Shown here: piece by piece, positions 18,577 through 64,000 of the stretch
Numbering within the stretch: position 1 is the first letter of the stretch
Layout: each line of letters opens with the position of its first letter
Origin: Xestospongia muta
Taxonomy: Eukaryota > Porifera > Demospongiae > Haplosclerida > Petrosiidae
Direction of reading: 5' to 3'
Assembly (NCBI GenBank): GCA_963693285.1
Contig: OY848929.1
Span: forward strand, 5,024,501-5,088,500
DNA: 64,000 nt
Notes under the pieces: generated by a model
Database searches by the model: none
Told to the model about the DNA's origin: nothing
Seen by the model: only the letters and a program-made list of their open reading frames with translations
Position numbers and translations under genes: made by a program

Positions 18577-20478
18577 ATGAGTTGGATAATACTTTCCCTC
18601 TTTTTCATGATATCAGTGATATCCATTCCACTATGGGCAGATGAATGTAAGAATTGTCCATCAAATATTAGACTACATGTCTACATTTATCAATTATCAT
18701 GTATTTTTTTCTTTAGATTCATGTATACCACCAAGTCGCAATGGTTGTTATAAATGTGGTCCAGTTTATCAAGGGACCACCCTTGTTATTCCATGTGGTA
18801 ATAAAAAGGAGAATAGTACTACATTATTCACTTATTTTAATGAAACAACAACATTAATTAATAACACTACAATGTTTCTAAGAAAGCACACAACAAGCAA
18901 TGACAACAATACAACAATTACTTGTAAAGTACATGATGAAGGGTCCTATTGCTATCAATTGAACATACACTGTAAGTCAAGTTCATAAAAAAGTAAGTTA
19001 TGAGATGTTTGTTAATTCTAATAGTTCCACCAATTCATCATAAATACCAAGACTTAAGAAACCCACCCTCTCCAACAACGGGAGTCCGTTTCACTCAAAA
19101 ATGTCCTGTCATTGCTAATCCACTCCCAACCTGTACTTGGAGCTTTTCAAAGCCATATAATGTAATAGTTAAGACATTGCCAAATCTCCAATTCACTCAC
19201 AATAACTGCACTATGATAGTTGATCCATTGACTACTGCTTATGAAGATGTTGATTATCATTGTAATGCAACTAATAAGTATGGATATAAAACTGGGTTTC
19301 TCACAGCTATTATAATTTTAAGTAAGCTATTAATTTATAGACTAGAGTTCTATCTATTTCTTGTCTTATTATAGATTGTGGATCCATTTCACGTCAACTG
19401 ACCATTAATGATAGTACCAACTATACTGTAAGTGTTAATGTTGGAGACAATGTTACTTTTCAGTGTAAAGCCACTGGTACAATGAATCATTGGAATATGC
19501 TTTGGTATCACAACAATACATACATCCCTACGGACAATAATGTATATAACAAGTCGCAATGTACCCAAACCAGTGTGTATAAGCTGACTGATGTCACATA
19601 CAATGACAGCGGGAATTATTCTTGTAAGTTTCCTTCCTATGAAGAAGTTCATGCTTATCTGACTGTACTACCAAGACCACATTCAAGTTAGTTACTATTC
19701 CTTGTTTCCTTCATTACGTCTTTATTTGCTTTTAGATCCTTTACTATTACAACAGAATCATATTGTGTGGTCCGGCTCTTTAGGCTTAGTGCTACTGATT
19801 GTAATAATAGTAGCAATAGTAGCAACAATAGTTATTAGTTATTGCTATCTTCAAAAAAATAGATGGAAATGGAGAGACCCAGGACCAGGTAAGCTCAACT
19901 AATACCAGGACTATTAATATCTTGATGCTATTTCTTTTTCTCTACTATCATATCAGCTAATTATGATTTGTTTCTGTCTTATGCTCGTGAAGATGAGGAG
20001 ATAGTAGAGACTGAGATTCGACAGCCTTTGATGCAAAAAGGTTATAATGTTTTCTGGCATCACAGAGACTTTATTGGTGGAGTACCCATAACGGACAATA
20101 TTGAGAATGCTGTGGAGAACAGTCGTTTTACAGTGACAGTATTGTCAAATTCGTTCCTTCAAAGTGAATACTGTAATAAAGAACTACACTGTGCATTGAC
20201 AAAGAAGAGAACAACTGGTACTAGATGCCTTATACCGGTTCTACTGGAAGAAGGCTGTCCAATTCCTAAAGAACTGAAACCATTCACATATATCAAGTTA
20301 TTTGACGCTAACTTTATTGACAAACTCTGCAAGGATATGGGTATGTAAGAGATGACATACTCCATCTTTATTTTCTTCTTACTTAGGTGATCCTTGTTAT
20401 CATGAGGCCCCCATTGTGATTACCAATAGCATGACCCTGATGGACTACAGGAGTGCAGTCTACCCAATAAACATATAA
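18577..20478 (+). CDS. IgTIR receptor 1 (3 Ig, TM, TIR)
   Basis: Seven coding exons in phase. Leader 18577-about 18645 (MSWIILSLFFMISVISIPLW); Ig1 about 18718-18971; Ig2 19024-19321; Ig3 19374-19687 with WYHNNT and DSGNYSCKF; membrane exon 19736-19890 (LVLLIVIIVAIVATIVISYC); TIR exon about 19958-20343 (YDLFLSYAREDEEIVETEI, box 1); last exon 20385-20478 ending YPINI-stop. The TIR BB-loop reads RDFIGGVPITDNIENAVENS, then VLSNSFLQSEYCNKEL, closely parallel to Toll-like receptors. The architecture equals IL-1 receptors and the AmqIgTIR proteins described from Amphimedon. It is expected to signal through MyD88-type adaptors to NF-kB; the ligand is unknown. A tandem paralogue follows 252 bp downstream. 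Confidence 0.93.
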
Positions 20479-20730
20479 TACTATTTTTATCTGTATAAAC
20501 ATTTTTATAGTGGTGTAAATGTTCAGTGTTGAGTTTATTACATATTAGAGATACCAAGTCACGATCAGTAGTAGATATTGAGCGCTCACATCCTCTATGA
20601 TGTCAAATTGTCACTACAGTTTTGATAAGGGTAATTTTGAAGCATTAACCACTACTGTCAACATTGAATAGTGAACCATCTGTTATACTATAGTATAAGA
20701 ACGTCACTAAGTTCAGCCCATATTAAGATC

Positions 20731-22691
20731 ATGAAGTGTGTCTTAAACATACTATGTCTGCTGTCTTTGTGGTTTCTCTTCAGATCAAATTGTGCACAAG
20801 GTAAATTAGAGCTATCTTCTGTAATATCATGTTTATTGACTGGGTCTAGGATGTGGATCTATTTGGTGTGATAATGACAGCTGTAGTGCTCACGTGGGTA
20901 CTGAGATAACAGTACCCTGTGGGACAAAGCAACCAAATACTGATGTGACTTTCACTTACAAAAATGAAAGTGGAAATTTTGACCACTTACTTGCCAGCAA
21001 CCAAACTAACTGTCTACAGTTGAACTTGACTGTTTTTGATAATGAAATATCTATCACTTGTGAACCCAGTGATTCAATGGGAGCTAAATATGAATACTCT
21101 ATCAATGTGACATGTAAGTAAAGTATGAAAAATTAATATTTAAATACTTTTGTAAGATTCTCCTAGAGTCCTTGGTGAACCTATAAGACCTACTGCCTAC
21201 TATGGAGAACCCTATTCTCTCAGATGTCCTATTAGTGCTAACCCTGACCCTTCTTGTACTTGGGATATTTTTTGGTGCTTAAATGGAAGTTTTGTTACTG
21301 ATCTCTCAGAAATTAATTACAGAAATAATAATTGTACTCTGGATATTACCCGTCTTACAACACAGTTTGCATCCATTTGTTATATATGTAATGCAAGCAA
21401 TGACTTAGGAAGAGAAATGTATTATTGGACTCCTATAGATTTGTCATGTGAGTGAGATATTTAATAGTGAAAGAGTCGACAAATTTAGCAATTTTCTTTT
21501 TTTCTAGTCTGTAAAGCTCCAAAAAAAGAGATTATCATTAGATCTTCTGAAGGATCAAACAGATCTTTATTTCTTAATGCAAACATTACTCTATCCTGTG
21601 ATATTACTGGAGTTCCAAGGCGCCATCCATCTATACGTTGGTCACACAACATTACAAATTACACACAACTGCTATCAGCTGACATAATTGAGAGTAGTAC
21701 CAATAATTACAATCGTCAAACCTGCTACCTTTCAGAAACGCTAGTTCTTGTGAACTTGACTTTCAATGACTCAGGAAGTTATACCTGTTTTTATGACTCA
21801 GGTACCATTTCTAAGACAATATACTTACATATTGTTCCAAGGCCTGGTAAGTGGACACACCATTACCTTATGATGTTATTAGTCTATTAACTTAGAAATA
21901 CCAGACAACACTCCATCATCCCAGGTTACAATGTCTACAACCACTGCATTTGTTTTTGACATCAACTATGCTCTCCCTGTAGCATCTGCATTGTTCTTTC
22001 TTTTGATTGTTCTCTGTGTCATTGTGACAACAATTATAATACTCTATATACGAAACAATCACCAAAGATCCTTCAAGAATCTACAATCACTACAAAGTGA
22101 GTTTTAAATACTAACAGACAAGATTTATCAGTACTGACTCTGAAACAAGTGTTTAGATGTTCATTGTTTAATGCTATTTTTTACTTGACATTTTGTTTTT
22201 TTAGCGGACTATATTTTAAAAGATCCAGATTATGACATATTTGTTTCTTTTGCTGAAGAAGACAAAAACTATGCCGAGAATGAAATTAAAATGAAACTAG
22301 AAAAGAAAGGCTACAAGATATCATGGCATCATGAGGTCTTCGTTCCTGGCTGTTCAATAGTAGAGAATATGGAGAAATTCATTTTTCAAAGTCGCATGAT
22401 AATAGTGTTAATATCAGATTTCTTCATTACTAGTGACTTTTGTAAGCAGGAATTACATATTGCTAAACGTAAAGAGAACCAAACATCAGTTCGGTGTATA
22501 ATACCAATTCTTCTACACAACTCAGAAAATGTGCCCCAGGAATTAATAAAGATAACGTATCTCACAGCTGGAGATAAAAATTTCATGGAAAGACTGTGTA
22601 CTGCATTAGGTAAGTAGTATTTGGTTAATAGTATAGCATTATGTGCTTACAATTTTCTATTATAGGTGAGCCATTAGATCCAAGTCCCTGA
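20731..22691 (+). CDS. IgTIR receptor 2 (3 Ig, TM, TIR)
   Basis: Same exon plan as its upstream neighbour. Leader 20731-about 20800 (MKCVLNILCLLSLWFLFRSN); Ig1 from about 20850 to 21113 (GTEITVPCGTK); Ig2 about 21164-21448; Ig3 about 21507-21845 with IRWSHN and NDSGSYTCFY; membrane exon about 21896-22096 (VASALFFLLIVLCVIVTTII); TIR about 22205-22611; a tiny last exon encodes GEPLDPSP-stop. TIR box 1 is YDIFVSFAEEDKNYAE, the BB-loop region FVPGCSIVENMEK, and box 2 continues SDFFITSDFCKQEL. The RD of the canonical RDxxPG BB loop is EV here, while the Pro-Gly is kept. A TATAGTATAAG lies about 40 bp upstream of the start. Likely a membrane innate-immune-type receptor; partner and ligand unknown. 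Confidence 0.93.
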
Positions 22692-22899: not shown

Positions 22900-25800
22900 T
22901 TACAAGTGAGAATCTTCATCCTTTGAAATCTCAAACTCAGATGTAGATTTCACAGTACTAAGATTTCTTGATCCTGCCGTAGAATGCTGTAAAAGAGTTA
23001 AACTGTAGCTTAAAATATTATTTATCAAAAACATATACCCGTATTGAACTTTTCTGTACTCTCTTTCTTTGTTTATGCCATTTCTTTATCCTACCCCAAA
23101 CCTACAGAGTAGTAATATAGTTACCACATACGTCATATAGCCAATATGAACATTGACTTACCAATGGAGTTTTAACAACATGAAAGAAAAAAATAAATGC
23201 TCCCTATAAAAAAAAGTCAATGATGGTCAGGTGGTATAACAACTACTTGTCAATGAAGTTAAGCAAGTATGAAGACCATTAATATGATAAGAGACAGTTC
23301 ATACACTTAAACTCTTAACTAATAACTAACCTGAAGAGAGTTCAATACAACAAAGAGCCAAGCAAATACACTTGTACTACTATTAACAGCAAAAATACCA
23401 ATGATCCAAGTCACACCAAGGAGAGGTAATAATATCACCATTCCTTTCACTATGTCACTGATAAAAATAAAACAACAGTAACAGTTTACATGCATACAAA
23501 ATGTGTTTACATTAGAGTTTTTTGTCCATCTTCTGTTTTCTTTTCAAAGTGAGTTGTGGGTCTCTTTGTAATAGTTCGTCGTCTCCTTTTTCCATACCGT
23601 GCCTGTCCTATTCTTATGAGGACTATCATTAATATCACTGTGTTTGCCTACACAAATTACATAGTGAAGCACTGTTTACACATCACCATCACAATCACAA
23701 CTTACACATATAATTCCTAACATAGGGCCAACAAAACCCCATATCACACCATAGTCTGTATTCAGCCAACATCTGAACAAAAAATGTAGTCAAGAATATT
23801 AATATTTATATTATTTATGATACAATTAATGACATCAAATATAATTATCACCCTTGAACTCTGGGTACTATCAAACCACAAGGACTTAATAAAAATAACT
23901 TACAGACTATTGGATGTATAGTGATTGAACCGAATTCCTAAAGTGACACCTACTGGTATGACAGGCAGGCCCCATCCCAATATGAAATAGATCCAGAGTT
24001 TCTTAGCAACTCGACTAAAGATGACAACAATTAGTAAATATAACATGATGCCTTCACAAAGCATCCATGAAAAAACAGACAAGAAGAGATAATGCAGTAC
24101 AACTGTAATTGTCATACAGAGTTCCTAGAACAAAAACATGTAATAACATGTACAAAGCTCAGTGCTATTTACTGGTATAGAAGTTGCTGTTTCTGTTCCT
24201 GCAACAAACACAATTAGTGCCAGCATCAAAGCAACAGCTAAGTTGAGATGAATAAAATTAAAAGGCTTTTCAAACAATTCCTTCCTAATTAGGAATAAAT
24301 GTCACACAATTTTATATACAAATGCTAACTTTAATGTCAGTAAACAGACTATAGTAGCCATTAGACAAACAATAGAGATAGAACATCCAACATAAGAAAC
24401 AATAGACAAAAGATTATCTTCTAAGCTAACGATTGTTGGTGTTGTCTCATTGGTCTGATTGGTAGCATTGTTGTCATCAATTGTAACTGGTTCATCAAGG
24501 TCTACAACACTAACTAGCACAGCAAAACTGGTCAAGTGATAAGAGAGACAACGGACCATTGTATCATTGATAAATGCATCAACTTTAATAGTATCATCAG
24601 ATACCCATCTACCATATGAAGTAGAGCTGTGGTATATTGTGAATAAAGGAGATGATTGAACTGATATCATTACTTGAAATCAGATGTAAAATTCCAGTAT
24701 ACACAGCGAGGAACAAGTCGTTTGCTAGATGAGTTGTAAGATACCTAGAAAAAAAGAGACAAAAATTGATACAAATTTAGAAATAATCTGCTTACATTAA
24801 GAGAGAATGTCAACTCAATTGGTGATTCCAGTAACACTTCTTCAGCAGAGACATTGGTATTAGCAGAAGTGACCACTTGACTTGATATTATCACACTTGC
24901 TGGCATACTCTCACTGTATTCAAACAAATATAATCAGTTAGTGTACATTACAACATCTCCCTTAGCTCACTTATCAGCTGAAGGAAGAAAGTCTTGAAGA
25001 GATGGAAACAACATATGAACTACTGACACATCACCTATTATTGTATGAAATAAATTTTTGAATCTTTTTGACTTATAAGATACCTTGATTTGCTTTAGCT
25101 TCAAGGTATGCAGCTGGTATAACAATACTGTTAGTAGTGTCAGTATTAGAGGAATTCACTAGATCACTCTTTGATGGAAATCTACTATTTTCAAAATTTC
25201 TTTTTTTTGCTGAAAACCGTCTGGCACGAATTGCTAAAATATCATGTAATTATAAAATACTAGCTATGAACACAAACCAAGATTTTCTCGAGAGAAGACA
25301 GCAGTTTCATTTGCATCACTAATAGTAGAAGCCAAATACTGTGCATAGGTTTCTGCATTACTCAAAAGTTCTTCGCTACCTGATTGAGATTGTTGGAGTT
25401 CAGACCACCCAGCCTCATTATTAGGGCTGAGTGCGTTATTCATAACATCAATTATATCCTGAAATGTGATGTCAAGATTTATAGCAACAATTGTAAGACA
25501 ATACCTGTCCCTGGTTTCCACCCGGCCCTCCCTGTTGCATCAACAAGGACAATGTTTGTCCCACAACAAAATTTAAAGTATTTAAATCACTCGGAGGAAG
25601 GGTCATATTATTATGAGGTATTGTCAAATTTGACAACTGATTCACAAGAAATAAGGCACCATCAAGATCAGGTTCTCCACCAAATGAATCATTGCCTTGT
25701 CCATTTCCATTAAAGAAAGTGTTTGCCTATCCAGATGATATCTGTGAACAATCTCAAGTACATTATAACTACACCTGCTCAGTAATGCCTTGTATATTGT

Positions 25801-26947: not shown

Positions 26948-29900
26948 TTACAAGTAAACATCATCCTTTGAAATCTCAAATATTGATGTGTCTTTTTGAG
27001 TGCTAAGATTTCTTGATCCTGCCATAGAATACTGTAAAAGAGTAAAACTGTAACTTAAAATATTATATATCAACAACATATACCCGTATTGAACTTTTCT
27101 GTACTCTCTTTCTTTGTTTATACCATTTCTTTATCCTACCCCAAATCTACAGAGTAGTAATATAGTTACCACATATTTCATATAGCTAATATGAACATTG
27201 ACTTACCAATGGAGTTCTAACAACATGGAAGAAAAAAATAAATGCTCCCTATAAAAAAAAAGTCAGTAATGGTCAGGTGGTATAACAACTACTTGTCAAT
27301 GAAGTTCAACAACATTGAAAAAAAACATTAATATGACAGGAGACAGTTCATACAATTAAACTCTTAACTAATAACTAACCTGAAGAGAGTTCAATACAAC
27401 AAAGAGCCAAGCAAATAGACTTGTACTGCTATTAACAGCAAAAATACCAATGATCCAAGTCACACCAAGGAGAGGTAATAATATCACCATTCCTTTCACT
27501 ATGTCACTGATAAAAATAAAACAACAGTAACAGTTTACATGTATACAAAATATGTTTACATTAGAGTTTTTTGTCCATCTTCCATTTTCTTTTCAAAGTT
27601 AGCTATGGGTCTCTTCGTAATTGTTTGTCGTTTCCATTTTCCATACCGTGCCTGTCCTGCTTTTATGAGGACTATCACTAATATCACTGTGTTCACCTAC
27701 ACAAATTACATAGTGAAGCACTGTTTACATATCACCATCACAACTTACACATATAATTCCTAACATAGGGCCAACAAAACCCCATATCACACCATAGTCT
27801 GTATTCAGCCAACATCTGAACAAAAAATGTAATCATATTAATATTTATATTATTTATGATACAATTAATGACATCAAATATAATTATCACCCTTGAACTC
27901 TGGGTACTATCAAACCACAAGGACTTAATAAAAATAACTTACAGACTATTGGATGTATAGTGATTGAACCGAATTCCTAAAGTGACACCTACTGGTATGA
28001 TGGGCAGGCCCCATCCCAATATGAAATAGATCCATAGTTTCTCAGCTACTTGACTAAAGACGACAACAATTAGTAGATATAACATGATGCCTTCACAAAG
28101 CATCCATGAAAAAACAGACAAGAAAAGATAATGCAGTACAACTGTAATTGTCATACAGAGTTCCTAGAACAAAAACATGTAATAACATGTACAAAGACCA
28201 GTGCTATTTACTGGTATAGAAGGTGCTGTTTTTGTTCCTGCAACAAACACAATTAGTGCCAGCATCAAAGCAAGAGCCAGGTTGAGATGAATAAAATTAA
28301 AAGGCTTTTCAAACAATTCCTTCCTATAAAAATTAGGAATAAATGTCACACAATTTTATATACAAATGCTAACTTTAATGTCAGTAAACAGACTATAGTA
28401 GCCATTAGACAAACAATAGAGATAGAACACCCAACATAAGAAACAATAGACAAAAGATTATCTTCTAAGCTAACGATTGTTGGTGTTGTCTCATTGGTCT
28501 GATTGGTAGCATTGTTGTCATCAATTGTAACTGGTTCATCAAGGTCTACAACACTAACTAGCACAGCAAAACTGGTCAAGTGATAAGAGAGACAACGGAC
28601 TGTTGTATCATTGATAAGTGCATCAACTTTAACAGTATCATCAGATACCCATCTACCATATGAAGTAGAGCTGTGGTATATTGTGAATAAAGGAGATGAT
28701 CGAACTGATATCATTACTTGAAATCAGATGTAAAATTCCAGTATACACAGCGAGGAACAAGTCGTTTGCTAGATGAGTTGTAAGATACCTATAAAGAAAG
28801 AGACAAAAATTGATATAAATTTAGAAATAATCTGCTTACATTAAGAGAGAATGTCAACTCAATTGGTGATTCCAGTAACACGTCTTCAGCAGAGACATTG
28901 GTATTAGCAGAAGTGACCACTTGACTTGATATTATCACACTTGCTGGTATACTCTCACTGTATTCAAACAAGTATAATCAGTTAGTGTACATTACAACAT
29001 CTCCCTTAGCTCACTTATCAGCTGAAGGAAGAAAGTCTTGAAGAGATGGAAACAACATATGAACTACTGACACATCACCTATTATTGTATGAAATAAATT
29101 TTTGAATCTTTGTGACTTATAAGATACCTTGATTTGCTTTAGCTTCAAGGTATGCAGCTGGTATAACAATACTGTTAGTAGTGTCAGTATTAGAGGAATT
29201 CACTAGATCACTCTTTGATGGAAATCTACTATTTTCAAAATTTCTTTTTTTTGCTGAAAACCGTCTGGCACGAATTGCTAAAATATCATGTAATTATAAA
29301 ATACTAGCTATGAACACAAACCAAGATTTTTTCGCGAGAAGACAGCAGTTTCATTTGTGTCATTAGTAGTAGAAGCCAAATACTGTGCATAGCTTTCAGC
29401 ATTACTCAAAAGTTCTTCACTACCTGATTGAGATTGTTGGAGTTCAGACCACCCAGCCTCATTATTAGGGCTGAGTGCGTTATTCATAACATCAATTATA
29501 TCCTGAAATGTGATGTCAAGAATTATAGCAACAATTGTAAGAGAATACCTGTCCCTGGTTTCCACCTGGTCCTCCCTCTTCCCTCAACAACGGCAATGTT
29601 TGTCTCACAACAAAATTTAAAGTATTTAAATCACTCGGAGGAAGGGTCATATTATTATGAGGCATTGTCAAATTTGACAGCTGATTCACAAGAAATAAGG
29701 CACCATCAAGATCAGGTTCTCCACCAAATGAATCATTGCCTTGTCTATTTCCATTAAAGAAAGTGTTTGCCTATCCAGATGATATCTGTGAACAATCTCA
29801 AGTACATTATAACTACACCTGCTCAGTAATGCCTTTTATCTTGATAGCAACACATCTATTTAAGTTAGGCTTTAACCATTCACCATTGACAGAACATCTT

Positions 29901-51200: not shown

Positions 51201-54200
51201 TCAACTACACTCCATGAATACTGAGGTAAAAGATATTGTAACTAGTACTACTTTTAATGGCCATATTCTCTTGTAGTGTCACAAAGAGAGAGACATACTT
51301 GATATGCTAATATCTAATCCTCATGACCCTAATCTCTCTGATGAAGATGCAAGGGAACTGTTGGACCAGCATGATGCTCAACTTGCTCGACTTGACTCTG
51401 CTGTAGAGAAATACGTTACTGAGACACGCTCTTTTACATCTGTAAGTTCTGAGCTTGAGACAAGTGGAGCGGATGCAAGAAGAACAGTACGTGGTATGCT
51501 AAGAAAGTTAGAGGAATCTGTATCTGCTACTCATAAGAAGTCCAGTAAATGGAAGTCTGAACTTGAAATGATTTTGAAAAAAAGTGGAACAGATCTAAAG
51601 TTGAGAAAGGTACAGCAACACAAAAAAATATTTTAAGAATTATATTATTCTGTCTTTTTAGCTGTTGTTATGGGTGACCGAAGTAGGACTTCCTTTTGTG
51701 AGTGTAATAACATTAGGAACTTCTCTTGAAGAGAGCAAAGTCCTGTTTGAGGAGGTTCAGCAATTTGCTGAGAAAGCCAAGGTATTGTAGTATTGGACTA
51801 TGTTCTATTAACATATATTATTATGTTTAGGATGTAACTGATGATATTACTGGTACTTTGAATGATGTCAAGAGACTACTGACACACTCTACTGGTGTGA
51901 AAGAAACTGCACAAACGCAAAATTTATTTGCAGAATTAAAATCGAATCACGAAATGTTTCAAGAAAAACTCTCGAACAGACAAAAAACACTTAAAACAAC
52001 TTATGATTTCTTCAAATCTGGTGATTCCCTCTCACTTGAATTGTCTGTAGTTCTAGATCCCTTAGCATCACCCACTGACACTTTTAATCCTATAGTAGCT
52101 GAGAAACTTTACACAGTTCTTTGTGCTCAGGCTAAACAGGTATGTCAGTTAGCACAGGCTCATCTTGATACTCAACCTACTATAATAAGTGCTAACAATA
52201 TATTACGAAAAGTTGATGAGAAAATTAGCACTTACTTAGTTGTATGCAAGAAAGCAGCCGAAGATCTTGAAGTATCTTTGTTAGAACTAGATGATCTTTT
52301 GAAAGAAATAGAAGCAAATGTACAGGAAGAGATCTTTATCGCAACAGGTCAAAAAGACAATTTACATTCTGAACTAACTAAATCTTCAAAAGCCCAACAA
52401 AGATTAGGGGCTTTTCGAGACCTTCACTCTCGTCGTCTAGGCTCAGTACTTGAACTGAAAAAGAAATTTGAGTCTCCAACATCATCTCCATTATCTCAGA
52501 AGAAAACATTATTACATTCAGCTGCTCCTGAAAAACCTTTGTCTGCTCCTGCTACACCTATAACATCTAGTCGAATAATTTCTACGTCTACTCATGTGAT
52601 TGTACAAGAACCTAAGAGTGCCACAGTAAAGACTTCCTTTCATGACTCTAAAGGAAATGATGTGTTTGTTCCTGCTTCACCAGCTTCCACTATGACTCCA
52701 CCCCCTCCCACACCACCTCCACCGTCAAAAGAGAGAGCACACTTAATCCAGTCTTTTGATTCAAAGGAAGACAATATAGAATCTCCTATTTCAACTCCAC
52801 CCCCTCCCACACCTCCTCCTCCTAAGGAAGTAGAACCACCTGTTCGACCTCCACTTCCTGTTGAATCCGAATCATCAGATAGTGCTCCACCTACTCCTCC
52901 CCCTCCTTCTATTATCCCAACTCGAACTGCCCCTCCTACTGATACCCTTACATCTGAGTCAGACAGTGCTCCACCTGTTCCTTCACTTCCTGCAATTCCA
53001 CCTCGACCGTCCCCTCCAGCCAATACTTCATACCCCAATTATAAGAGCAAGAATGAAATCACGGAACAATTCATAGAAAACATGTCATCACAGTCATCCT
53101 CTGGTTCAATGTCTCCACATGATGAAGAGAAGGAAAATATTGAAGCTAACAGCTCTCAATCTTCTATTGACGAACTCACTGATGTTCGCTATGACAGTCC
53201 TGATCCACCTGTCATTCAACCAGTAGAGTCTGATCACCATGGTAACTCTAATGGTCATTTTAATGAGTGGATGTTTATTGATGAAGAACTCACTCTTCCG
53301 TTAGAAGGAGAGGAAGAAGATGCATTTCAAGAGGAGTTCCCAAGAGCTAGAATTTTGTCTCCAGTTTTTGAGGAACTGGATGAAGAAGGAGATCGTCCCG
53401 ATATTGGATGGAGTAGTTTCCCACGTCGTAGTAAACGAATTAGCTCTGATGAAAGAGCACAGTGGGTACAAGCTCATAAACAAAGTTTACAATCTATGAG
53501 GTAATGTTACTATTATTAGTAACAAGTAATATGCATGGTCAAAAATATAATACTTGGCGCATACACATGTGTGAGGGAGTGTGTATGTACACATGTACAT
53601 GTAAGAATGTGCCAAAAATACTGATTGCTCTTTTTGATTACGAAATGTTATGACAATATTTAATTTTTGTTTATTCTAGAGCAATATTAAGTGATTTCTA
53701 TAATGATGAAATAGAGTATACAAAAACAGTCAACAAATTAGTGCAGGTAATTATAAATGATGTGTTATTACATTAAACTTAAATTACCACTAACAGGTCT
53801 ACTCTCCTATACTACAGTACACTGGTGCTTTTGTACACTTATCTGACTTAGCTGATTTCCAAACGTATGGAACCACCTATACTTAAATAAATGACATTAA
53901 CTGTCTCATATTATTTATTTTATTGTTATAGATTTTTTATGGAACAGATAACTGCCTCACTGTCTGATATACCTACTCTGTGTAAATGTTTTCAAGAGAA
54001 TGTAAGAATCAATTCCATTACTAATTAGTATTATGTTGTCTTTGTTGTTAGATAAACTCATTTAAGCTTTATTTTCCTTACGTTATCAATTACGATAATT
54101 CCTTGAATGCATTGTCTATGTGTAAATCAGAAGAGTTGGCTCTTCTCACACAAAATGAGGCCACTAGTGATGGCGAGTTGATAGTTGACTATAGTGCTCC

Positions 54201-54496
54201 TTACCAACGTCTTGAGATCTACTGTAACCTCTTTCAAGTACATTTAGACAATTCATGTTGCGATACTTAACTTTTTTTCTCTAGCAACTTCTTCAAGCTG
54301 CTTATAAAGAAGATTTGATGAGTCTAGCTGCCCTCTCGGTTAGTGCAGTCTTTATACTATTTTGTTATTAATAAATTTATTTTTAGGAAACTTTGGAATC
54401 ATTACTAAATATTTTAAAACTATTATCAATAGAGTTAATCACTTCAAAACTACAAAACTGTCCAGTATGTTTCCACTCATTCCTTCTTAGTACATT

Positions 54497-54568
<72 letters not shown>

Positions 54569-57500
54569 AGTTCTCCATTAAAGCTTCTGATATTATCACA
54601 ACTAATCCATTTTTGGTTCACTTGGCTAATCGTGAGAGAGAAGTGTTCATGTACACATGTTTCCTTCATCCTGATGCTATTGTTCTAGCAGAGAGACGTT
54701 TAAATGATTCAAAAGAAAGAATATATTATGAATATATAATGCACATACCAGTTAGTAAGATGGATGACTTACTGTATAATATTTACTTCTTTTAATTGAT
54801 AGACATCAGGGTTACTTCTTATTAAGAATTATCATGGACTCTACGATCGGTTTGCTGTTTGTGAGAGAGGTCAAACAAGCCAAGAAAATATTGTAGTATT
54901 CAGAGTGAGTTATATTAAAAATAGTGTTCATTTAAAATATTCAATTCTTTAGGCTTGTGAAGATACTTCAGTAAAAGATTTTTGGGTAATAGAATTGGAC
55001 AAGCTATTAAAAAATCAAGCCAATGAACTAACTCGTAAGTCAAATAATTTTTATTTAAAGTTAGCAAGTAATGTTTTCTTTAGCTCGAGAGACATTACAA
55101 CCTGAACAAGTTGAACAGCTAGCTTATCTGATTCCAACAACTGCTCCACCTCCTCCAGCACCTAGCGATAGACTTCAGCCATTAAGACATAAAAGTATGC
55201 ACTCTAAAGTTGAGTTCACCACACTTATGTATATATTGCACAGGACGAAAACGTTTTTCAAAGACAAGTCAAGATTCTATAGATGGATATGAAGTAAGAA
55301 TATTATTGCTAGTTGTTCTTTAATATAATATTTGTTTAGGATATTCATATTGCTTCTGACTATACCAACATTCATCGTGTTGTAATGGACCACACTGCAC
55401 CTCCTGGTAACCCTTACAACTACCTCTCTGTACAAGAAGGAGATCTAGTGGATGTGATTGAAGAGAAAGGTTTAAACTATCTAGTTATAACCATCCCTTT
55501 GGAGTCCTCTGACAAAGAAGAAGAAGGCTACATTCCACAATGCTGTGTAGAACCTATATATCGTCAAGAGGAGATATCTCAACTCAATCTCAATAGTAAC
55601 AACTCACATGAGATTTTATCTCCAGTTAGATTGGAAAGGGTAGTAGAGCCTTACAATGATACTAACTACCCTAACAATAAAGATTCCGAGGAAGAGTTTT
55701 ATTCAGAATCTGATTCAAATAATGATGAAGAAGAGATATCACATAGTCAGACAGAGTTACATAGTGACTGGATGTCATTTTGTGCAAAAATTGGACATTT
55801 TGTTTCCTTTCCAAATTGCCACACGGAAGATGAACTGCTTCAAGCTAAAATGGAAGTGCTTATCAAGTACCATTCTAGTCTTGGAGAGCCTCATAAATCC
55901 ACTGCATCAGAAGACTGGGTAGACAGACCTCATGATATCAGGTTGGTCAGTCAATCTACTGTTTAATAAACTTATTGTCATTATTGTGTTTAATTAGTTC
56001 ACTTCCTAGTACAAAACGAAAACAGTTATATGAGGCCTCATTTCTTGGTAATGAAGAACCATCCAATGCTCAACTTAATGGGGTAAGCAATAAATAAAAA
56101 AATAAATTATAATTTTAAATAATAACCATTAAATAATATAAACTAAGGATGATGAATTATTACTTAGAAGAATACCATGCTTTATTTTGTTATCTTTTGG
56201 TAAGCAATGGTATTGTCCCTCTTACTAAGATCAACTATAGCATACACTTTCCCCTCGATTGTTTTAATGGGAGGTGTATGATAAGGTGTGCCACTGTGTT
56301 TAGGTTGTGGGCAGACAGGTTGGACATAAAAGGGACCTTCACCCACTCTTCCATTATCAACACAAACATAGAAAGGATGTGTTGATTCTTCATTACCATA
56401 ACAGTCAATGTAATCATCTGTTGAGTTTTGTAGATGGATTTGTGGAGTTATTTTAGTATCTGAAATATCAGAGAGTCCAGTTGACAAAGTAGTTTGTTGC
56501 AATGACTTTTTACAAGTGTCAGCAGGTGTACCTATAAATAGAAATAAAGCAATAAAAAACAAAAATATATATAATAAAAAATAAAACAATTATTGTATCT
56601 TGAGTATATGCCTACCACTTTTGTTATCTTCTGACAAATTATGTTTGCACTTTTTAAATGTAATCATGATCGTGGTACAAGCCAGTAAAATAAGCAATAG
56701 GACTAGAGCTAAGATAGATACTGCCACAAACCCAGCTATCCACACAATTTCAGGTTTGTTGTCTGCAGAAATGGATGACTGACATATGAATGGAGAAGGA
56801 ACTTGATGCTTTTTAGTTTTTGTAGTAATACTATTTAAGTCTGCACATTTAACTGTGGGTGTGCTGTCAAAGACTACAGATGGACAAAGAGATAGACCTT
56901 GGTAGTAAGCTGGTTCTTGAATAAAGAGTTTATTGGAAGGCTTCAGTGGTATTTTCTCAAAACCTGTTGTGTTGCTAACTTGGCAAAAATATTCACCTGT
57001 TGAACTCTCATTGAATGGATTTTTTAGGGACAATGTGGTAAAGTACAGACCGGAAATCGATACTGTGATACCAGAATTAAGTTTGGTTGTTTCACCTTTA
57101 GTATCATTATGATACCAGCTCACAATTAAGTTATCTGTTCCTCTTGTACGAACAACAATGCATAGGAAACGTGGCAACAATATTGGAGGATTAACTGTCT
57201 CATTAAAGGGATTACAATTCAGTTTTGTTGGAGGCTCATTAACATAGTGAATTCTACATTCCCTTAATGGTCAAGAAAAGATGGTATCAATACAAATAGT
57301 ACTATACTATATGTGTTTACCTTGAGTTAGGGAAAATAACACAGCCACTTTGATGCAGATACACAAGACTGGCTTCATCACTGATCTGCTATTCTCTTCT
57401 CTATCTAGTAATAGAGTACTTCTTTTATAGACTCTAGTAATAAGTGATCATTGTGCGTTTATATTTATTACAGCATTGCTTTATATGGCATAGCGTGGGT

Positions 57501-60500
57501 GTTCTGGATTACTTTCAACTTAGTTGTAACTTTTGTCTATTACAATTTGTGATGTCATTGATGATGTATCGTGCAATGAATACCAATCTTTAATTGATTT
57601 TAATAAGCGATAAATAGATTAAAATTATTAAAATTAATGATAGAAACTGTACACTTCACAATCAACACTTATCACATGAATTATTGTAGAAATTAAATTA
57701 AATGAATATTGATAAGCTATTTCTTAATTTTTTGGTAAGACACGCGATTGTCCCTCTTATTGATATCAGCTATAGCATAGACCTTTCCCTCAACTGTTTT
57801 AATTGGAGGTTCAGGACACGTTGTGTTGCTGTGATTAGGTTGTGGAGAGTTAGGATTGATGTACACAGGACTATTAATATTATCAGAGTGAACATATGAA
57901 GACTGAAGCTCTTCAGAAGTGGACCAATCAACATAATCGTAAGACTCTGCTGAATGTTCTTGATGAATTAGTACTGGTTTGGGTTGTGGTGTGATGTTAC
58001 TATCTGAAACAGAAGGAATTGTGGTTATTCCAGTTTGTGATGAGGTTAATATCTCAGATTCCAGTGGCTTTGTTTTCTTGTAAATGATAGGCATATCTAA
58101 AGAAAGGACATTGAAATGATTGTCTCTTGTTATTAGTAAGCTTACTGTATTTTGACATACTAGACAAATTTGTCTGGTATTTCCTGCAAATAATCATTAT
58201 GATGCAAATTAGTAAAATTAGTAATAACAATAGAGCTAAAAAAAGTACTACAACAAATCCGACTATCCATCTGACTTCACTGTCACTGTCCATAGAGACT
58301 GCTGTTGTTGGTGAACAAGAAAATAATGCAGTTGTTTTTGCAGTAGCAGAAGAAAGAGGTAATGAGGAGAGTATAGTGGCTGTTAATTTTGAACTATTTA
58401 AGTCTGCACATTTAACTGTCGGTGTACTGTCGAGGACTACAGGTGGGCAGGGGTAAGCACCTTGGTAGAATTCTGGCTCTTGGATGTAGAGCTTATTGGA
58501 TGGATTGAGTTCCATACTGTCATTGTCTGTTGTATTAGTAGCTTGACAGAAATACTCACCTATTGTACTCTCGTTGAACGAATCAAAGACTAACCTGGTG
58601 ACATAAATGGTTGAGTCTAGTGTTATGCCATTAGTGGCAATCTTGGTTACAGAACCATTAGTATTATTATGATACCAGTCCACACTGAAAGTGTCTTCTC
58701 CACTTGCACGGACAAGAACACACAAAACACTTACTGAGCTAACAGTCTCATTGAAAGGATTGCAATCCAATTCAGATGGAGGCTCATTAATAAATTGAAG
58801 TCTGCACTGCCCTAACAGTTAGGAAGATTGCATCAGTATAGCTAATACTAAGGATTGAAAACTTATAATTAAATACCTTGAATTAAGGGGAACAGCATGG
58901 CCACTTGAATACAGATGCACAATAATGGTTTCATCACCAATCCTACTCTACTATCATTTGGCAGTAGTAAATGTCCTTATATACTAGAGTATATGCTATG
59001 TAGTGAATGATCACTGATGACTTATAACTGCTACAATATTTCCATATTAGGAATAGAGGGACTTTCTTAAAATGTTTATTAACAGGTTGTTATACTTTTT
59101 AATGACAACTTTTCGTTTCAGTATTGATGATTTGATAAATACATGTTTTGTATCAACTTGTTCCCTAACGCAAACATTACTTAGAAACGGTACATAACAT
59201 AAAATGATAAAGTCATTTAGTCTACGATAATAGTAAGTGGAGTATACTTAGTAGTAACTATACTGCTTTGATCAACAGGTGTATATGTATTATCTTGTGT
59301 ACTAGACACAACCATAGAGTCATTTTTCTTATAACTTTCTTCTTCGTCATCTTTAGTTGATGTTCTCTTGTCATTAAGCATAGAGTATAAACTGATATAG
59401 TCTGTATTATTGACATTTAGACATTGATACACAGTGTCTGTTACTGGTGACGAGGGTATATTATCTATATAGTCATATATTGGTAGTTTTATCATAGAAG
59501 ATCGAGGGATTGTTAATATGTCAGGATCAACATATTCGGGTTCAGTGGTTTGAATATAGGTCTTGTTATTAATATCAATTGAACTATTAGATCTGTTATC
59601 TAAGGAAAGAAATAGAAAATTACTACTAAGGACTACACTACATATTAGATATTAGTTTTAATAGAACTTAGAATAATTTATTACTCATTGGGGACATTCG
59701 TTTGTGTACGATAGCTATCGCACACAAATCATTTAGACTAAATATCAAATGTGGCCTTAATTCTAACATTAGCTAAGTATCAATGAGTATAATTGGTTGC
59801 ACATGATGTTCCTAATTAACAGATTTTTCCCAACTAGATAGTGAGTACATTTGGAGATGAGCCAAATAACAGGATGTGTAATCTTACCAGTTGTGAGTTT
59901 GGACTTCCTGTTAAAATACGCAACAATGAATACCGCAAGTCCAAGGATGATCATTAATACCACACCCACACTAATTGATACTATGACACCCAATCGGATA
60001 GCATTATTGTTTTCGGTGGGATCATTAGACATTGGATAATCTAGAGTGTGCACAATGACATGAGATTCAGTTATTAATAAATTCTTCACTTACTAGAATT
60101 TTGGGCCAAATTTGCAATTACAGTCAAACTAGGTTGGTATTTTTCTGTAATTTGTACCATTGTTTGTAATTTGATGTTGAGTGATTCTATTGTTCTAGAA
60201 GGAAGAGTTGTAGTTGTCTGAAATAATTTCTTGGAATTACTGCTCGTGGTTTGACTTATTATTGTGTCATATTTATTAATAATGATTGTTGCCATGGCAA
60301 CACTAGTAGCACTAATTGTAGAAGCAATAGTGGTTCTCCTTGTTGTGGTGATGGCATCTTTGAGGCTTGATGTCGTAATTTCTGAACTATGACAAGTTAG
60401 TGATGTCACCATTGTAGAACTATCTTTTACTATTGTTGATATTACGATTCCTGTTGTTGTAAGTTTTTGGTTAATACTTTTGCTGTTCAATCTAATATCA

Positions 60501-63500
60501 TGTATACATGTGAACTCAGCAACATTTACAACATCAGTACATGTTGGAAGGTTGCCATAGGATTGTGGATATTGTACATATAAGATATTACTTGTTGCTA
60601 TAGCAATATTATCCCAAAACACTTGACAGTAATAACCACCAACCATACTCTCCACAAAAGGCATATTAAGTCTATCATTGCCGTACAATGATTTTATTTC
60701 ACCAGCATTTTTCTCCCAGGTTCCTGTTCCTAAATTTTCTCTTTCTAATTGAGGGATTATCTGGAACCAGCGAATTTCCCAATTATTAGAATAACTTGTC
60801 TGAGTCCACTTCATTCTACAACTCATTTGTAGCACCCATTTTGAATCATTAAAAGAATTACAGTCTAAAGTGGATTGGGTTATCCCATTAACTAGACACA
60901 TACCTAACAAAACAGAAAAGTAAGACTTGTATTGCATCATCCACATACAAGATATTTCTTGATAAAAGAGTTGACATATTAGAACTATAAAAAATATCAT
61001 CTCTGAGGGCTTGCCAGTCTTCTGAATGAGGTGATTGTACATACTGCGCAAGTCTAGTTTTTATATGTATAACGGTTTCCATCCCATCGTTAAGTTCATG
61101 CAACCACAAGTTAGAGAAAAGAGCTGACTAACTTTGTTAACAACCCACATAGTCAAAGCATGTAGCTATTGAGAAACACTAAAATGGTGTGTGTACTAAC
61201 TTTGTGGTTTGGATGAGTGACAAATGAAAGGGAGCCTTACATCAACATCAAAATGGTGCACGTGTGTAAATTTACTGACGCGATTTTCATAACAAAGAAT
61301 AAAGTACTCTGTTAATGCAGAACACACTTAAGTAATGTACTATTAAAAATAAAACAGGTTTGTCGTTAATATTACTAAAAATACATCTCTTCACTTTTTA
61401 TACTGTCTGGTACATGTGAGAGCTCCAGAGCTTCATACAAATCCGATATTTGTTTGTCGGTTTCTTTAGAAGCAAAGGTACGCATAGCTATGTTTACTTT
61501 GTTATCTACTTCCTCATAATCTTCCTGGTTAAGATCATCATCAATGATAGTTGTAGTGACATCATCATAAATGCCTTGTTCTTCGTCAAATGAATTGGAA
61601 TCATAAACATCATCTTTTAGGGAACTATCAGGAGGAGGTGGTGGAGGCACCAAAGTAGGAGGAGGTGCTGAAGTAGGAGGAGGAGGAGGGAATTTTATTT
61701 TACTTGCTGTAGGAGGTGGTAGTACTGAGGGTGGAGCAGGGGATGGTGTCTTAGGAAGTTGAGTTGGAACGGGTTGGGGTTTTGGTACTACCGGGAGGTG
61801 ACTTTGAGTGGTGCCTTTTTTTGGACATTTGGGTAACTCTGTACCTACAGGACTGGTGTTTCTTTTTACACTTTTAACTGGTTTGATGTATGGTGTTGCA
61901 GTTTTGGACATGGCGGTTTGGCTGTCATTGAGAAAAGGATCTGTGTATATACCAACCTCCTTGATTGATGGAGTTTGAACTGTTTGTGACTTATGACAGG
62001 AAGATGGCTCTGGATGTAAATGTCTTTTTTTATTTGTGTTAGTTGTTTTTATTGCTCTCTCTTCTTCTCCCAAAATTGGAGTAACAAATTCATCTTGATC
62101 ATTAGAATGTATTAACTGGACTAATTCTGTATTGTCTACATAAAAGACAAATATCTCAAATTATATATACAAGCACAACAATATTACAAGTATTCTTGGT
62201 CTTACCTTCTTTTTCTATCCTGTACACCTGCTTCTTTTTTATTATATATCTCACGTGTAACATAAGGCAAGCCAACATTACTAGCAGACAGAATATCATT
62301 AGTGTGACTACTAGAGCAGTTCCCCCTGCTCCTATGGCTATGATTTCATATATATTTGGAAAATACTGAGGATCTGAAGTTTGGGTACTGCTTGGCATCT
62401 GTGATATTGTACTCTCTACACTGATACTGGAGATGGAAAGGAACCCCGAACTATCATTGCTCATCTTTGTGCTCTGCTAATATGTCTTTATTTTGATTAC
62501 TTCAAGACTCTCTGCCAAAGATAATCCTACTCTGACTTCAACAAGGAGGAAAATGAGAATATTATGAGATGACACTCGACTATATAATTACATTTGATAT
62601 TATAGAAGTAACTAAATAAACTGTAAATTGTCAATTGGGATGCTTTCTTTACTTATTTCCTTTTCTCTTTTTACAGTTATTTGCCCTTCGTCATCCATAT
62701 GTGACTACTGAGCTTATTGAGGCCTCAGATACATACCAACTCTCATTGAGAGGGGGACAGTTAGTGAAAATATTGGACAGCAAAAGAGATGATTGGTGGT
62801 TAGTGAGCACTTTCCCAGAGGGAGAAATAGCTCCAGAAGAGGGATGGGTTCAGCGTCATCTTCTCCAACACCCAGAATGTTAGTTGTATATGTATTTAGT
62901 CATCTTAAGCAGTAAAGTGTTAATAAGTGATATAAGTAATAGCTAGTTGACAAAGGAATTTTTCACTTATATTTACTTACTTGCTTTAGGTGTCAATTTA
63001 AATTGTTGCTATGGTGATAGTGTTTCATACAGATAAATGCTATATAGTTTACTTATTGTAGAGGCAGTGTTTTTCTTAATGTTGTGTTATGAATAGACAC
63101 AGATTAAGTAGACTGTTCAGTTATAAGAGAGCAAGTCGACTTGCCTTTCATCGATTGTCTTTTTTTTCTATGCCAGACATTCGGGAAGAGGTCACTGATG
63201 AGCCAGCATCCAATGTAAGTGATGTATTCCATTAAAGAAAAAATGATATTGAGTTTTATTGTTTAGCCTTCTTTCACAGTTCCTGCTCTGTGGTTGGTCT
63301 TGGAAGACTATTTAGCAGCTGAGAATGGTACAATTTCAGTTACTAGAGAAGAATTAGTAGAAGTTATTGACAATGCACACAACTGTTGGTCTCTAGTAAG
63401 AACTATTGGTAGACGACCTCGAGAAGGCTGGATTCCAACTGAATTCATAAAACCATATAATTTCTCTGATCATCAAGGTTCAGTCAAAGTTGCCTAATAT

Positions 63501-64000
63501 GAACTCTAATTGTCATTTTAATATGTCCTCTCTTTTAGAATCAGGGTCTCCGCTCATAGCTGGACCTGTAATTCGTCCTGGCAGTGCTGGAGCTGATTCT
63601 TCTTCCACAGAAGGAGTGTTTGATTCACCATCACCACTATCACCTTGTCTAAGTGTTGGAGAACTCACTGATGAGGATAAAAGAAGAGAAGCTGCTGAAC
63701 ACAGAGAGTGAGGAGACGATCTTTAAGATTAATATTTTCATTCTTTTGTTTCTAGTTTCACTCTTTCTGAATTTCTTGAAACTGAGAAACAGTATTTGGA
63801 AAGATTAGAGTATTGTCTTTTGAACTACAAGGCAACTATTGAAGGAAGTAGTACTTCGGTTCCAAAATCATTGAAATCTGTGTCTGACGAACTATTTGGA
63901 AACATTCAAGACATATACAATTACCACAAACAGTAAGAGATAGAAACTGAAAATATATTGACTTCTAGGGTGTGTCATCCATGCAGGGAGATCTTGCCAC
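45243..64000 (+). CDS. TRIO/Kalirin-type RhoGEF (partial at right edge)
   Basis: A giant multi-exon gene that runs off the window. From the ATG at 45243 (MATGSTPLSPNPSECQEISG) it encodes a Sec14/CRAL-TRIO domain (46895-47570: LKLAILSGGRDENGREIITF, CELGFAIIVDGRALSWAEIK, matching TRIO FVSGGRD...ILTF), spectrin repeats (about 47617-52480), a proline-rich linker (52690-53020, TPPPPTPPPP), a divergent DH1 (53682-54400, with SAPYQRLEIYCNLFQQLL for the usual KPVQRITKYQLLLKELL), PH1 (54571-55035) and three SH3 domains (55385-55560, 62678-62880, 63270-63478). DH2 starts at 63757 (FTLSEFLETEKQYLERLEYC, LFGNIQDIYNYHK). The order equals TRIO, a Rac/RhoG/RhoA exchange factor guiding migration and adhesion. 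An intron from 56084 to 62677 houses four antisense genes. Phase 0 on both sides supports one gene. Confidence 0.85.
45715..45812. repeat. 49-bp tandem duplication in TRIO-like intron 1
   Basis: GTATGACATTGTACTGATGA... at 45715-45763 is repeated at 45764-45812 with one or two differences. The surrounding 1.55-kb intron (45341-46893) shows no exon. Confidence 0.9.
54498..54567. repeat. (CT)n at 3' splice site of TRIO-like PH1 exon
   Basis: Seventy bases of CT end in AAG at 54568-54570 and are followed by the exon FSIKASDIITTNPFLVHLAN. The tract doubles as the polypyrimidine tract. Confidence 0.95.
56182..57378 (-). pseudogene. Nested Ig receptor 1 (ITIM-like tail), apparent frame break
   Basis: Lies in the big TRIO-like intron, antisense. 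Leader exon MKPVLCICIKVAVLFSLTQ (57320-57378). Exon 2 (about 56617-57267) has one V-like Ig domain (WYHNDTKG, TGEYFCQVSNTTGF), a Cys-containing stalk (STPTVKCADLNS) and a membrane segment (VAVSILALVLLLILLACTTI). Exon 3 (56182-about 56531) is a tyrosine-bearing tail with PPIKTIEGKVYAIVDLSKRD and ends IAYQKITK-stop, an ITIM-type I-x-Y-x-x-I. With the canonical donor CAAG|GTAAAC and acceptor TTAAG|GGAATG the Ig frame is off by one base, unlike the intact paralogue at 57717-58934. It may be a frameshifted pseudogene, a sequence error in the GGG run, or use an unusual splice. Confidence 0.7.
57422..57429 (-). promoter_or_regulatory. TATA box of nested receptor 1
   Basis: CTATAAAAGA on the minus strand, about 45-50 bp before the leader ATG at 57378. 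Confidence 0.6.
57717..58934 (-). CDS. Nested Ig receptor 2 (ITIM-like tail)
   Basis: Intact paralogue of the gene at 56182-57378. Leader exon MKPLLCICIQVAMLFPLIQ (about 58877-58934) joins in phase to GQCRLQFINEPPSELDCNPF. The Ig domain has Cys, FSVDWYHNNTNG and STIGEYFCQATNTT; then comes a stalk (DSTPTVKCADLNSS, Ser/Thr-rich) and a membrane segment (VVLFLALLLLLILLICIIMI). The last exon (57717-about 58097) encodes a tail with YDYVDW, VYINPN (a YxN, GRB2-type site) and the shared PPIKTVEGKVYAIADINKRD ending VSYQKIKK-stop, a V-x-Y-x-x-I ITIM. Likely an inhibitory-type surface receptor recruiting SH2 phosphatases; this is inference from the motif alone. It has its own TATA box. Confidence 0.85.
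58977..58984 (-). promoter_or_regulatory. TATA box of nested receptor 2
   Basis: AGTATATAAGG on the minus strand about 45 bp before the start at 58934, at the same spacing as in receptor 1. Confidence 0.6.
59217..61000 (-). CDS. Nested Ig receptor 3 (ITAM-bearing tail)
   Basis: The leader MIFFIVLICQLFYQEIS (from 61000) probably splices over a 45-bp intron to CMCLVNGITQSTLDCNSFN; an unspliced reading through MQYKSYFSVLLG is also open. One V-like Ig domain (EIRWFQII, VGGYYCQVFWDN), a Cys pair stalk (YGNLPTCTDVVNVAEFTC) and a long mucin-like Ser/Thr region follow. The membrane exon at about 59888-60047 has IVSISVGVVLMIILGLAVFI. The last exon (59217-about 59599) carries eight or more tyrosines, including DTVYQCLNVNNTDYISL, which fits the ITAM consensus D-x-x-Y-x-x-L-x6-Y-x-x-L exactly, and the overlapping SLYSML, an ITIM-like hexamer. 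Stop after TPLTIIVD. Antisense within the TRIO-like intron; TATAAAAA lies about 60 bp upstream. Confidence 0.82.
61058..61065 (-). promoter_or_regulatory. TATA box of nested receptor 3
   Basis: CATATAAAAACTAG on the minus strand, about 60 bp before the start codon chosen at 61000. Confidence 0.55.
61375..62464 (-). CDS. Proline/tyrosine-rich transmembrane adaptor-like protein
   Basis: Two exons, 62206-62464 and 61375-62135, in phase (EKEG split to E-DNTELVQLIHS). There is no signal peptide. A Ser-rich 40-residue N-terminus is followed by one membrane segment (IAIGAGGTALVVTLMIFCLL), a basic KKKQVYRIEK and a cytoplasmic region of about 270 residues. This has proline-rich stretches (KIKFPPPPPTSAPPPTLVPP) that could bind SH3, WW or EVH1 domains, and acidic-tyrosine sites (KDDVYDSNS, GIYDDV, EDYEEVDN, DLYEALEL). 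The build resembles vertebrate LAT/PAG-type adaptors: tiny ectodomain, membrane span, phosphotyrosine tail. No homologue is recognised by sequence. It neighbours ITIM/ITAM receptors, so a role as their scaffold is a fair inference. A TATATAG lies about 110 bp upstream. Confidence 0.78.

What the first reader, a model, noticed from the sequence alone, without database searches (positions are those of the whole stretch)
56182..62464. Receptor-adaptor gene cluster nested antisense in one intron of a TRIO-like gene
Four genes on the minus strand fill nearly all of the 6.6-kb intron between TRIO-like exons ending at 56083 and starting at 62678. Three encode single-Ig transmembrane receptors with shared sequence (C...W-Y-H...Y-F-C-Q, stalk STPTVKCADLNS) and one encodes a proline/tyrosine-rich membrane adaptor. 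Tails combine ITIM-like and ITAM motifs. The arrangement resembles vertebrate paired-receptor clusters, but in a sponge-like genome and locked inside a cytoskeletal GEF gene.
Basis: partly seen in the sequence, partly recalled or inferred. Interest (0 to 1): 0.9.

Follow-up and report, generated by a model that had tools for sequence, protein, structure and literature searches.

The report
Sponge immune-type receptor genes inside TRIO intron
Inside one large intron of a sponge-like TRIO gene sit three single-Ig membrane receptors and a membrane adaptor; the receptor tails carry the tyrosine switches used by vertebrate immune receptors, and although such nesting is ordinary, the receptors belong to a large family that could push this type of signalling back to sponges.

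Summary
A 6,594-bp phase-0 intron (56083-62676) of a TRIO-like gene contains four antisense genes; the model's 17 other introns are 46-298 bp. A and B (ectodomains 55% identical, omega 0.38) and C (25%) are single V-type-Ig membrane receptors; D is a Pro/Tyr-rich membrane adaptor. The stalk motif STPTVKCADLNS is in A and B only. A and B end in an ITIM; C carries an ITAM (YQCL-x6-YISL). As assembled, A lacks a splice acceptor (AA for AG). The quartet is a small part of a larger family: ten more receptors in two C13 clusters (ITAM in 8 of 10 tails) and about 30 tandem Ig exons on C10, where five tails examined carry ITIMs and no ITAM. The genome encodes a Syk/ZAP-70-like tandem-SH2 protein and five SHP-2-like loci. 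Two receptor pairs share ectodomains (67%, 82%) but not tails. Best reading: inhibitory (A, B) and activating (C) ITIM/ITAM-type receptors; expression, signalling and ligand are untested. Nesting itself is common in Amphimedon.

The parts
56083..62676 (+). Host intron of the TRIO-like gene (6,594 bp, phase 0, GT..AG)
   Evidence: the 17 other introns in the model are 46-298 bp
55998..56082 (+). TRIO-like exon before the intron (..SNAQLNG)
   Evidence: read-through past 56082 meets a stop after 4 codons
62677..62878 (+). TRIO-like exon after the intron; starts at an SH3 domain (LFALRHP..), no Met before the domain
   Evidence: Pfam SH3_2 best stretch of the stitched piece lies here
51831..55941 (+). 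TRIO-like exons upstream: linker, DH1, PH1-like, SH3-like
   Evidence: RhoGEF 6e-10; PH 5e-4, below its cut-off; one search counts a second SH3_2 stretch in the piece
63177..63932 (+). TRIO-like exons downstream: SH3 and start of DH2 (continues in L023)
   Evidence: DH2-PH2 best PDB match Trio, 1.3e-40
56182..57378 (-). Gene A: signal peptide, V-type Ig, stalk, TM, tail with C-terminal ITIM IAYQKI. Exons 57321-57378, 56616-57263 (non-canonical acceptor), 56182-56531
57263..57265 (-). Gene A acceptor: AA (57265-57264) where B has AG; the next AG, 1 nt on, shifts the frame
57717..58934 (-). Gene B: signal peptide, V-type Ig, stalk, TM, tail with C-terminal ITIM VSYQKI. Exons 58877-58934, 58161-58811, 57717-58096
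59217..60940 (-). Gene C: family ectodomain, long S/T-rich stalk, TM, tail with ITAM YQCL-x6-YISL. Exons 60094-60940, 59888-60040, 59217-59599
61375..62464 (-). Gene D: short N-terminal ectodomain, TM, proline-rich and tyrosine-rich tail (adaptor-like). Exons 62206-62464, 61375-62135
   Evidence: no family above cut-off; tail exon: no second match in the genome at E<=0.01

Best explanation
Genes A, B and C are members of a large family of single-V-type-Ig transmembrane receptors that signal through tyrosine motifs in their own tails; D is a scaffold-type transmembrane adaptor. A ligand at the cell surface clusters a receptor and a Src-type kinase phosphorylates tail tyrosines. A and B (terminal [IV]xYQKI ITIM) then recruit an SHP-2-like tandem-SH2 phosphatase and dampen signalling. 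C (YQCL-x6-YISL ITAM) recruits the Syk/ZAP-70-like tandem-SH2 kinase and activates. D's tyrosine motifs and polyproline stretches gather SH2 and SH3 proteins, as LAT does. Shown: gene structures, motifs, family, and the presence of Syk-like and SHP-like genes. Inferred: phosphorylation, SH2 binding, sign of the signal, ligand, expression. The receptors sit in the TRIO intron most likely because a piece of a C13 receptor cluster moved or duplicated there (inference), and they are transcribed independently (inference).
Against: No expression, phosphorylation or binding data. In the nested genes alone the motif excess is modest (p 0.014-0.016) and the number of genes with a motif is not significant (p 0.14, 0.11). 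Over all 13 tails the number with an ITIM is not significant either (9 of 13, p 0.087). C holds 4 ITIM matches as well as its ITAM, so its sign is ambiguous. Identity around the tyrosines shared by the A and B tails is barely higher than elsewhere in the tail (15/32 against 37/87). Related tails are not independent, so shuffles overstate significance. A may be broken. Other long frames of the window gave 17 ITAM matches in 7 of 47 frames, most of them hydrophobic or simple-repeat; among 10 hydrophilic frames, 1 match. R6, R7 and R10 tails and the C10 link are divergent.
Confidence: 0.6

Rival explanations
1. They are general IgSF adhesion or developmental receptors whose tail tyrosines recruit assorted SH2 adaptors (Crk/Nck/Grb2-type); the ITIM/ITAM regex matches are incidental and there is no opposed activating/inhibitory set.
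For: Many tail tyrosines are of other kinds (YINP, YVQP, YDYVD; read). A and B lack ITAM. B is only slightly less conserved than a TRIO exon between two sponges (85% against 88%), unlike a highly diversified recognition gene. A review read in passages describes sponge IgSF mainly as adhesion molecules (PMC11999971).
Against: ITAM excess in the related C13 tails and ITIM excess in five C10 tails; ectodomain sharing with different tails.
Confidence: 0.27
2. The TRIO-like exons on the two sides belong to two separate genes and the receptor cluster is intergenic.
For: The intron is over 20 times longer than the longest of the other 17 in the model. No RNA was available, and a query spanning the junction found no homologue.
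Against: Both splice sites are canonical and phase 0, the reading is open across the junction, read-through of the upstream exon ends after 4 codons, and the downstream exon opens at an SH3 domain with no Met before it. The order DH-PH-SH3 then SH3-SH3-DH-PH resembles TRIO/kalirin.
Confidence: 0.05
3. The nested copies are decaying relics of the family.
For: A's acceptor is AA. Family fragments with stops exist on C11 (10 of 11 rows) and C14 (3 of 3 rows).
Against: B, C and D have intact canonical models; A and B show omega 0.38 and B is conserved in another assembly.
Confidence: 0.08

Closest known systems
Hydractinia Alr and Botryllus fuhc IgSF receptors with ITIM/ITAM/hemITAM tails (PMC12065747, passages read)
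   Same: Invertebrate IgSF transmembrane receptors at clustered loci, ITIM/ITAM-type motifs in their own tails, Syk/SHP machinery in the genome
   Different: Phylum; single V-type Ig with extra conserved Cys; no evidence here for allorecognition, polymorphism or homotypic binding; that review calls the sponge, cnidarian and ascidian candidates unrelated. No sequence comparison was made
Vertebrate paired receptors (KIR, LILR, CD300, PIR; general facts recalled)
   Same: Ig receptors in clusters; some members share ectodomains but differ in tails; ITIM and ITAM logic
   Different: Here the ITAM lies in the receptor's own tail, and no charged TM residue or DAP12-type partner was seen; profile matches to solved structures are at general Ig level
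CgIgIT2 of oyster, an Ig receptor with ITAM (PMC11999971, passages read)
   Same: Invertebrate Ig receptor with an ITAM in its own tail
   Different: Five Ig domains and reported ligand binding; here one Ig domain and gene clusters
LAT-type transmembrane adaptors (for gene D; recalled)
   Same: Short ectodomain, one TM, long tail with several tyrosine motifs
   Different: Large polyproline stretch; no Pfam family above cut-off
Nested genes of sponges (PMC10282587, passages read)
   Same: Genes inside introns; 3,358 counted in A. queenslandica, 2,432 in Aphrocallistes vastus
   Different: Here four genes fill one intron; how often that occurs was not looked up

Membership tests
Immunoglobulin superfamily, V-type | Disulphide Cys pair, core Trp, Y-x-C signature | tested here: met
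   Invariant C31, W46, C89 (B ectodomain numbering) in 12 of 12 aligned ectodomains; Y87 in 90% or more
Immunoglobulin superfamily, V-type | Pfam Ig match above the curated cut-off | tested here: inconclusive
   A: ig 22.4 against 21.8; B: I-set 24.7 against 23.7 for the ectodomain alone, below as full length; C: none; 4 of 12 members match PF00047 at E<=0.1
Immunoglobulin superfamily, V-type | V-type Ig fold | tested here: met
ITAM receptor (gene C) | YxxL/I-x6-12-YxxL/I in the cytoplasmic tail | tested here: met
   C, and 8 of 10 C13 relatives
ITAM receptor (genes A, B) | YxxL/I-x6-12-YxxL/I in the cytoplasmic tail | tested here: not met
   No match in A or B
ITAM receptor | Phosphorylation and Syk-type tandem SH2 binding | not testable with these tools
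   Only the presence of a Syk/ZAP-70-like gene was shown
ITIM receptor (genes A, B) | [SIVLT]xYxx[LIV] in the cytoplasmic tail | tested here: met
   A IAYQKI, B VSYQKI
ITIM receptor | SHP recruitment | not testable with these tools
   Only SHP-2-like genes were shown
Paired receptors (C13 relatives) | Very similar ectodomains with different signalling tails | tested here: met
   R4/R9 82% and R3/R10 67% ectodomain identity, tails do not align
Paired receptors (nested A, B, C) | Very similar ectodomains with different signalling tails | tested here: not met
   A and B have similar tails as well as ectodomains; C differs in both
Paired receptors | Opposite signalling of the partners | not testable with these tools
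   Motifs only
Paired receptors (vertebrate type) | Activating member with charged TM residue and ITAM adaptor | tested here: not met
   No charged residue inside the TM segments of A, B, C, by reading the models; D has no ITAM match
Hydractinia Alr family | Sequence relationship to Alr proteins; polymorphism; allorecognition role | not tested
   No Alr sequence was compared here
TRIO/kalirin family (host gene) | Two DH-PH modules with SH3 | tested here: met
   DH1 6e-10 (its PH below cut-off), DH2-PH2 6.5e-29 and 3.9e-16, best PDB match Trio, SH3_2 above cut-off
TRIO/kalirin family (host gene) | Spectrin repeats N-terminal | tested here: inconclusive
   One 359-aa upstream piece gave no Pfam family; the rest was not scanned
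LAT family (gene D) | Sequence relationship to LAT | tested here: inconclusive
   No Pfam family above cut-off; no direct comparison made

The most novel reading that the evidence does not exclude
Sponges possess a large germline-encoded ITAM/ITIM immunoreceptor system: tens of single-V-Ig receptors, an inhibitory ITIM-type tandem array on one chromosome and activating ITAM-type clusters on another, working through Syk and an expanded SHP-2 set. If so, the signalling logic of NK/T-cell receptors predates the split of sponges from other animals, and these receptors are candidates for sponge self/non-self or microbe recognition.
Probability: 0.35. Interest if true: 0.9.

Novelty: new variant of a known kind. 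Interest (0 to 1): 0.7.

Why it matters
The review read in passages (PMC12065747) traces ITAM/ITIM use in recognition receptors from cnidarians to mammals and names unrelated candidates in sponges. A sponge family with both motif types, both effectors and shared ectodomains would move that origin earlier and give sponge immunology concrete receptor genes to test. The nesting itself matters mainly as a trap for gene annotation.

Tried and rejected
Rejected: nesting as the main surprise. Rejected: two separate TRIO-like genes. Rejected: the stalk motif as a mark of all three receptors. Rejected for A: another acceptor that restores the frame; I saw none when reading the intron. D as a family gene: its tail exon has no second match at E<=0.01; its first exon was not searched. 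A TRIO query spanning the intron found no homologue at E<=1e-5, perhaps because that collection holds mostly single-exon frames of such genomes; so continuity in other species could not be tested, while the large TRIO exon alone found 4 entries. In some searches only about 8,000 candidates were scored, so counts are lower bounds. Motif conservation around A/B tail tyrosines is barely above the rest. A first count of control ITAM matches looked high (17 in 47 frames) and came from 7 frames, most hydrophobic or simple-repeat. Foldseek alone gave no match at E<=0.001, and its top three rows are bacterial adhesin repeats. Literature: ten searches, of which 9, 57, 58, 63, 87 and 88 bear on sponge ITAM/ITIM or Ig receptors; among the rows listed (20 of 22, 12 of 22, 4 of 4, 3 of 3, 10 of 130, 3 of 3) I saw no title or abstract on ITAM/ITIM receptors of sponges. 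Only open-access papers are held. Grice et al. 2017 is not held. Six papers were seen in passages only. Recalled, from no call: vertebrate paired-receptor, DAP12 and LAT facts and the name AmqIgTIR.
Full report
Setting. The window is C13:5024501-5088500 of a 158-Mb genome in 28 contigs. Short introns and Ig-TIR-like genes fit a demosponge such as Amphimedon queenslandica; the species was not established by any search.

Host gene. A 19-exon model (51831-63932, all AG/GT, 1,400 codons, no stop) runs across the intron 56083-62676 in phase 0; its other 17 introns are 46-298 bp. Upstream are DH1 (RhoGEF 6e-10), a PH-like stretch below its cut-off and an SH3-like stretch; downstream are SH3 (two) and DH2-PH2, whose best solved relative is Trio (1.3e-40). 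By reading alone, L023 then shows Ig, FN3 and kinase segments, apparently twice; these were not scanned. The exon after the intron starts at an SH3 domain with no Met before it. Two separate genes are therefore unlikely, but no RNA was available.

Nested genes. A and B share signal peptide, Ig, stalk, TM and tail with phase-1 introns (ectodomains 55% identical). C's ectodomain is 25% identical to B's. D is a single-pass adaptor-like protein whose tail exon has no second match. A against B: dS 1.02, dN 0.39, omega 0.38; Ig 0.35, stalk 0.62, tail 0.51, so both have long been kept as proteins. A, however, carries AA instead of AG at the acceptor of its Ig exon; the AG one base on breaks the frame. 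It may be a null allele, an assembly error or a non-canonical splice; I cannot tell.

Family. Single-exon searches of the whole genome found relatives on C13 at 4.626-4.635 Mb and 5.446-5.463 Mb. I read five genes in each (R1-R5, R6-R10; R8 by eye only). Twelve ectodomains (without R8) align with 9 invariant columns. Further searches reached a tandem array on C10 at 1.311-1.420 Mb, C1 at 17.43-17.50 Mb (5 rows, 8), and fragments on C11 (10 of 11 rows with stops) and C14 (3 of 3 with stops). One search lists 51 matches; 30 of them are C10 exons covering most of the 144-residue query, 27 of these without stops. The link between C13 and C10 is weak and runs mainly through R7 (1.3e-7, 2.3e-7) and R6 (8e-5).

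Motifs. With ITAM = YxxL/I-x6-12-YxxL/I and ITIM = [SIVLT]xYxx[LIV], 13 receptor tails hold 12 ITAM matches (some overlapping) against 0.66 in 5,000 within-tail shuffles, in 9 of 13 tails (8 of 12 without R8); 5 of 5 tails of the 4.63-Mb cluster and 3 of 5 of the 5.45-Mb cluster have one. R2, R3 and R4 share one module (YAAINP..Y[TS]SL), so they are not independent. ITIM matches: 18 against 8.3 (p 0.0012), but the number of tails with one is not significant (9 of 13, p 0.087). Nested A and B have one ITIM each at the C terminus; C has the ITAM plus 4 ITIM matches; D has neither. Five C10 tails, close paralogues, hold 14 ITIM matches against 2.2 and no ITAM. Controls: no ITAM in the TRIO-like model piece (its last part was misread in that call); 17 matches in 7 of 47 other long frames of the window, most of those frames hydrophobic or simple-repeat; 1 match among 10 hydrophilic frames.

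Effectors. Of 76 SH2 matches in the genome, I read four loci where they lie in tandem. C7 has two SH2 domains followed by kinase segments; the tandem-SH2 piece best matches SYK and ZAP-70 (7e-48). C5, C3 (three) and C8 have SH2-SH2-PTP genes; the C5 protein matches PTPN11 over residues 1-517 of 560 (1e-196), the other four are by reading. A Syk-family kinase from A. queenslandica is already in print (PMC9601881, passages read).

Paired-receptor hallmark. R4 and R9 ectodomains are 82% identical and R3 and R10 67%, yet their tails do not align. I infer that ectodomains and tails have been recombined or converted independently. This is not seen within the nested trio, where A and B have similar tails.

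Relatives elsewhere. The protein collection lists 10 entries; P0005 is the window's own B frame, and P0001 and P0002 read as this genome's R4 and R2 frames. P0008 is 85% identical to B's frame over 237 residues. P0006 (R2-like by eye), P0008 and the TRIO exon relative P0013 (88%) are each reported with a longest contig of exactly 2,305,611 bases, so most likely one contig of another sponge carries all three. This fits conserved nesting but does not show it. B is only slightly less conserved than the TRIO exon, which speaks against extreme diversification of B.

Mechanism and status. I favour inhibitory A/B and activating C receptors using SHP-like and Syk-like effectors, with D as a scaffold; the steps after gene structure and motif are inference. 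Nesting is ordinary: 3,358 nested genes among 43,615 are counted for A. queenslandica. IgSF receptors with ITIM/ITAM-type tails are known from Hydractinia and Botryllus and an ITAM Ig receptor from oyster, so the kind is known; I saw no sponge family of this sort in the rows listed by the literature searches, which cover open-access papers only.

Noticed in passing
G000 C10:1.311-1.420 Mb (L031, L032 examined): Tandem array of about 30 related single-Ig receptor exons, all matches on one strand; five tails read carry ITIM motifs. Probably the main seat of the family.
   Followed up: partly
window 18571-22617: Two adjacent genes with Ig-like frames followed by TIR-like frames; TIR with extracellular Ig is known in sponges (PMC12909245, passages).
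   Followed up: no
L023 2000-6400: TRIO-like gene seems to end in Ig-FN3-kinase twice, an obscurin-like tail on a TRIO-like GEF (read by eye).
   Followed up: no
G000 C3:11.956-11.961 Mb, C5:8.742 Mb, C8:8.078 Mb (L026-L028): Five SHP-2-like SH2-SH2-PTP loci, four of them open in one frame, three in tandem on C3: an expanded set.
   Followed up: partly
G000 C8:6.53-6.58 Mb and C6:0.115-0.238 Mb: Dense groups of SH2 matches, eight on each chromosome stretch, nature unknown.
   Followed up: no
L021 1101-2920 and 3486-5269: Two further Tyr-rich transmembrane adaptor-like genes in the 5.45-Mb receptor cluster, one with repeated TYDEV and polyproline units; similar in build to D by eye, D's tail found no sequence match.
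   Followed up: partly
G000 C11:2.95-3.11 Mb and C14:2.88 Mb: Repeated fragments of the receptor Ig exon, nearly all with stops, possibly carried by a repeat.
   Followed up: no
window 24302-24679 and 28346-28723: Two nearly identical minus-strand frames (YHSSTSYGRWVSDDT..) of a duplicated membrane receptor, adhesion-GPCR-like by eye.
   Followed up: no
window 8213-8710 and 54490-54570: Long CT/GA microsatellites, one ending just before a TRIO-like exon acceptor.
   Followed up: no
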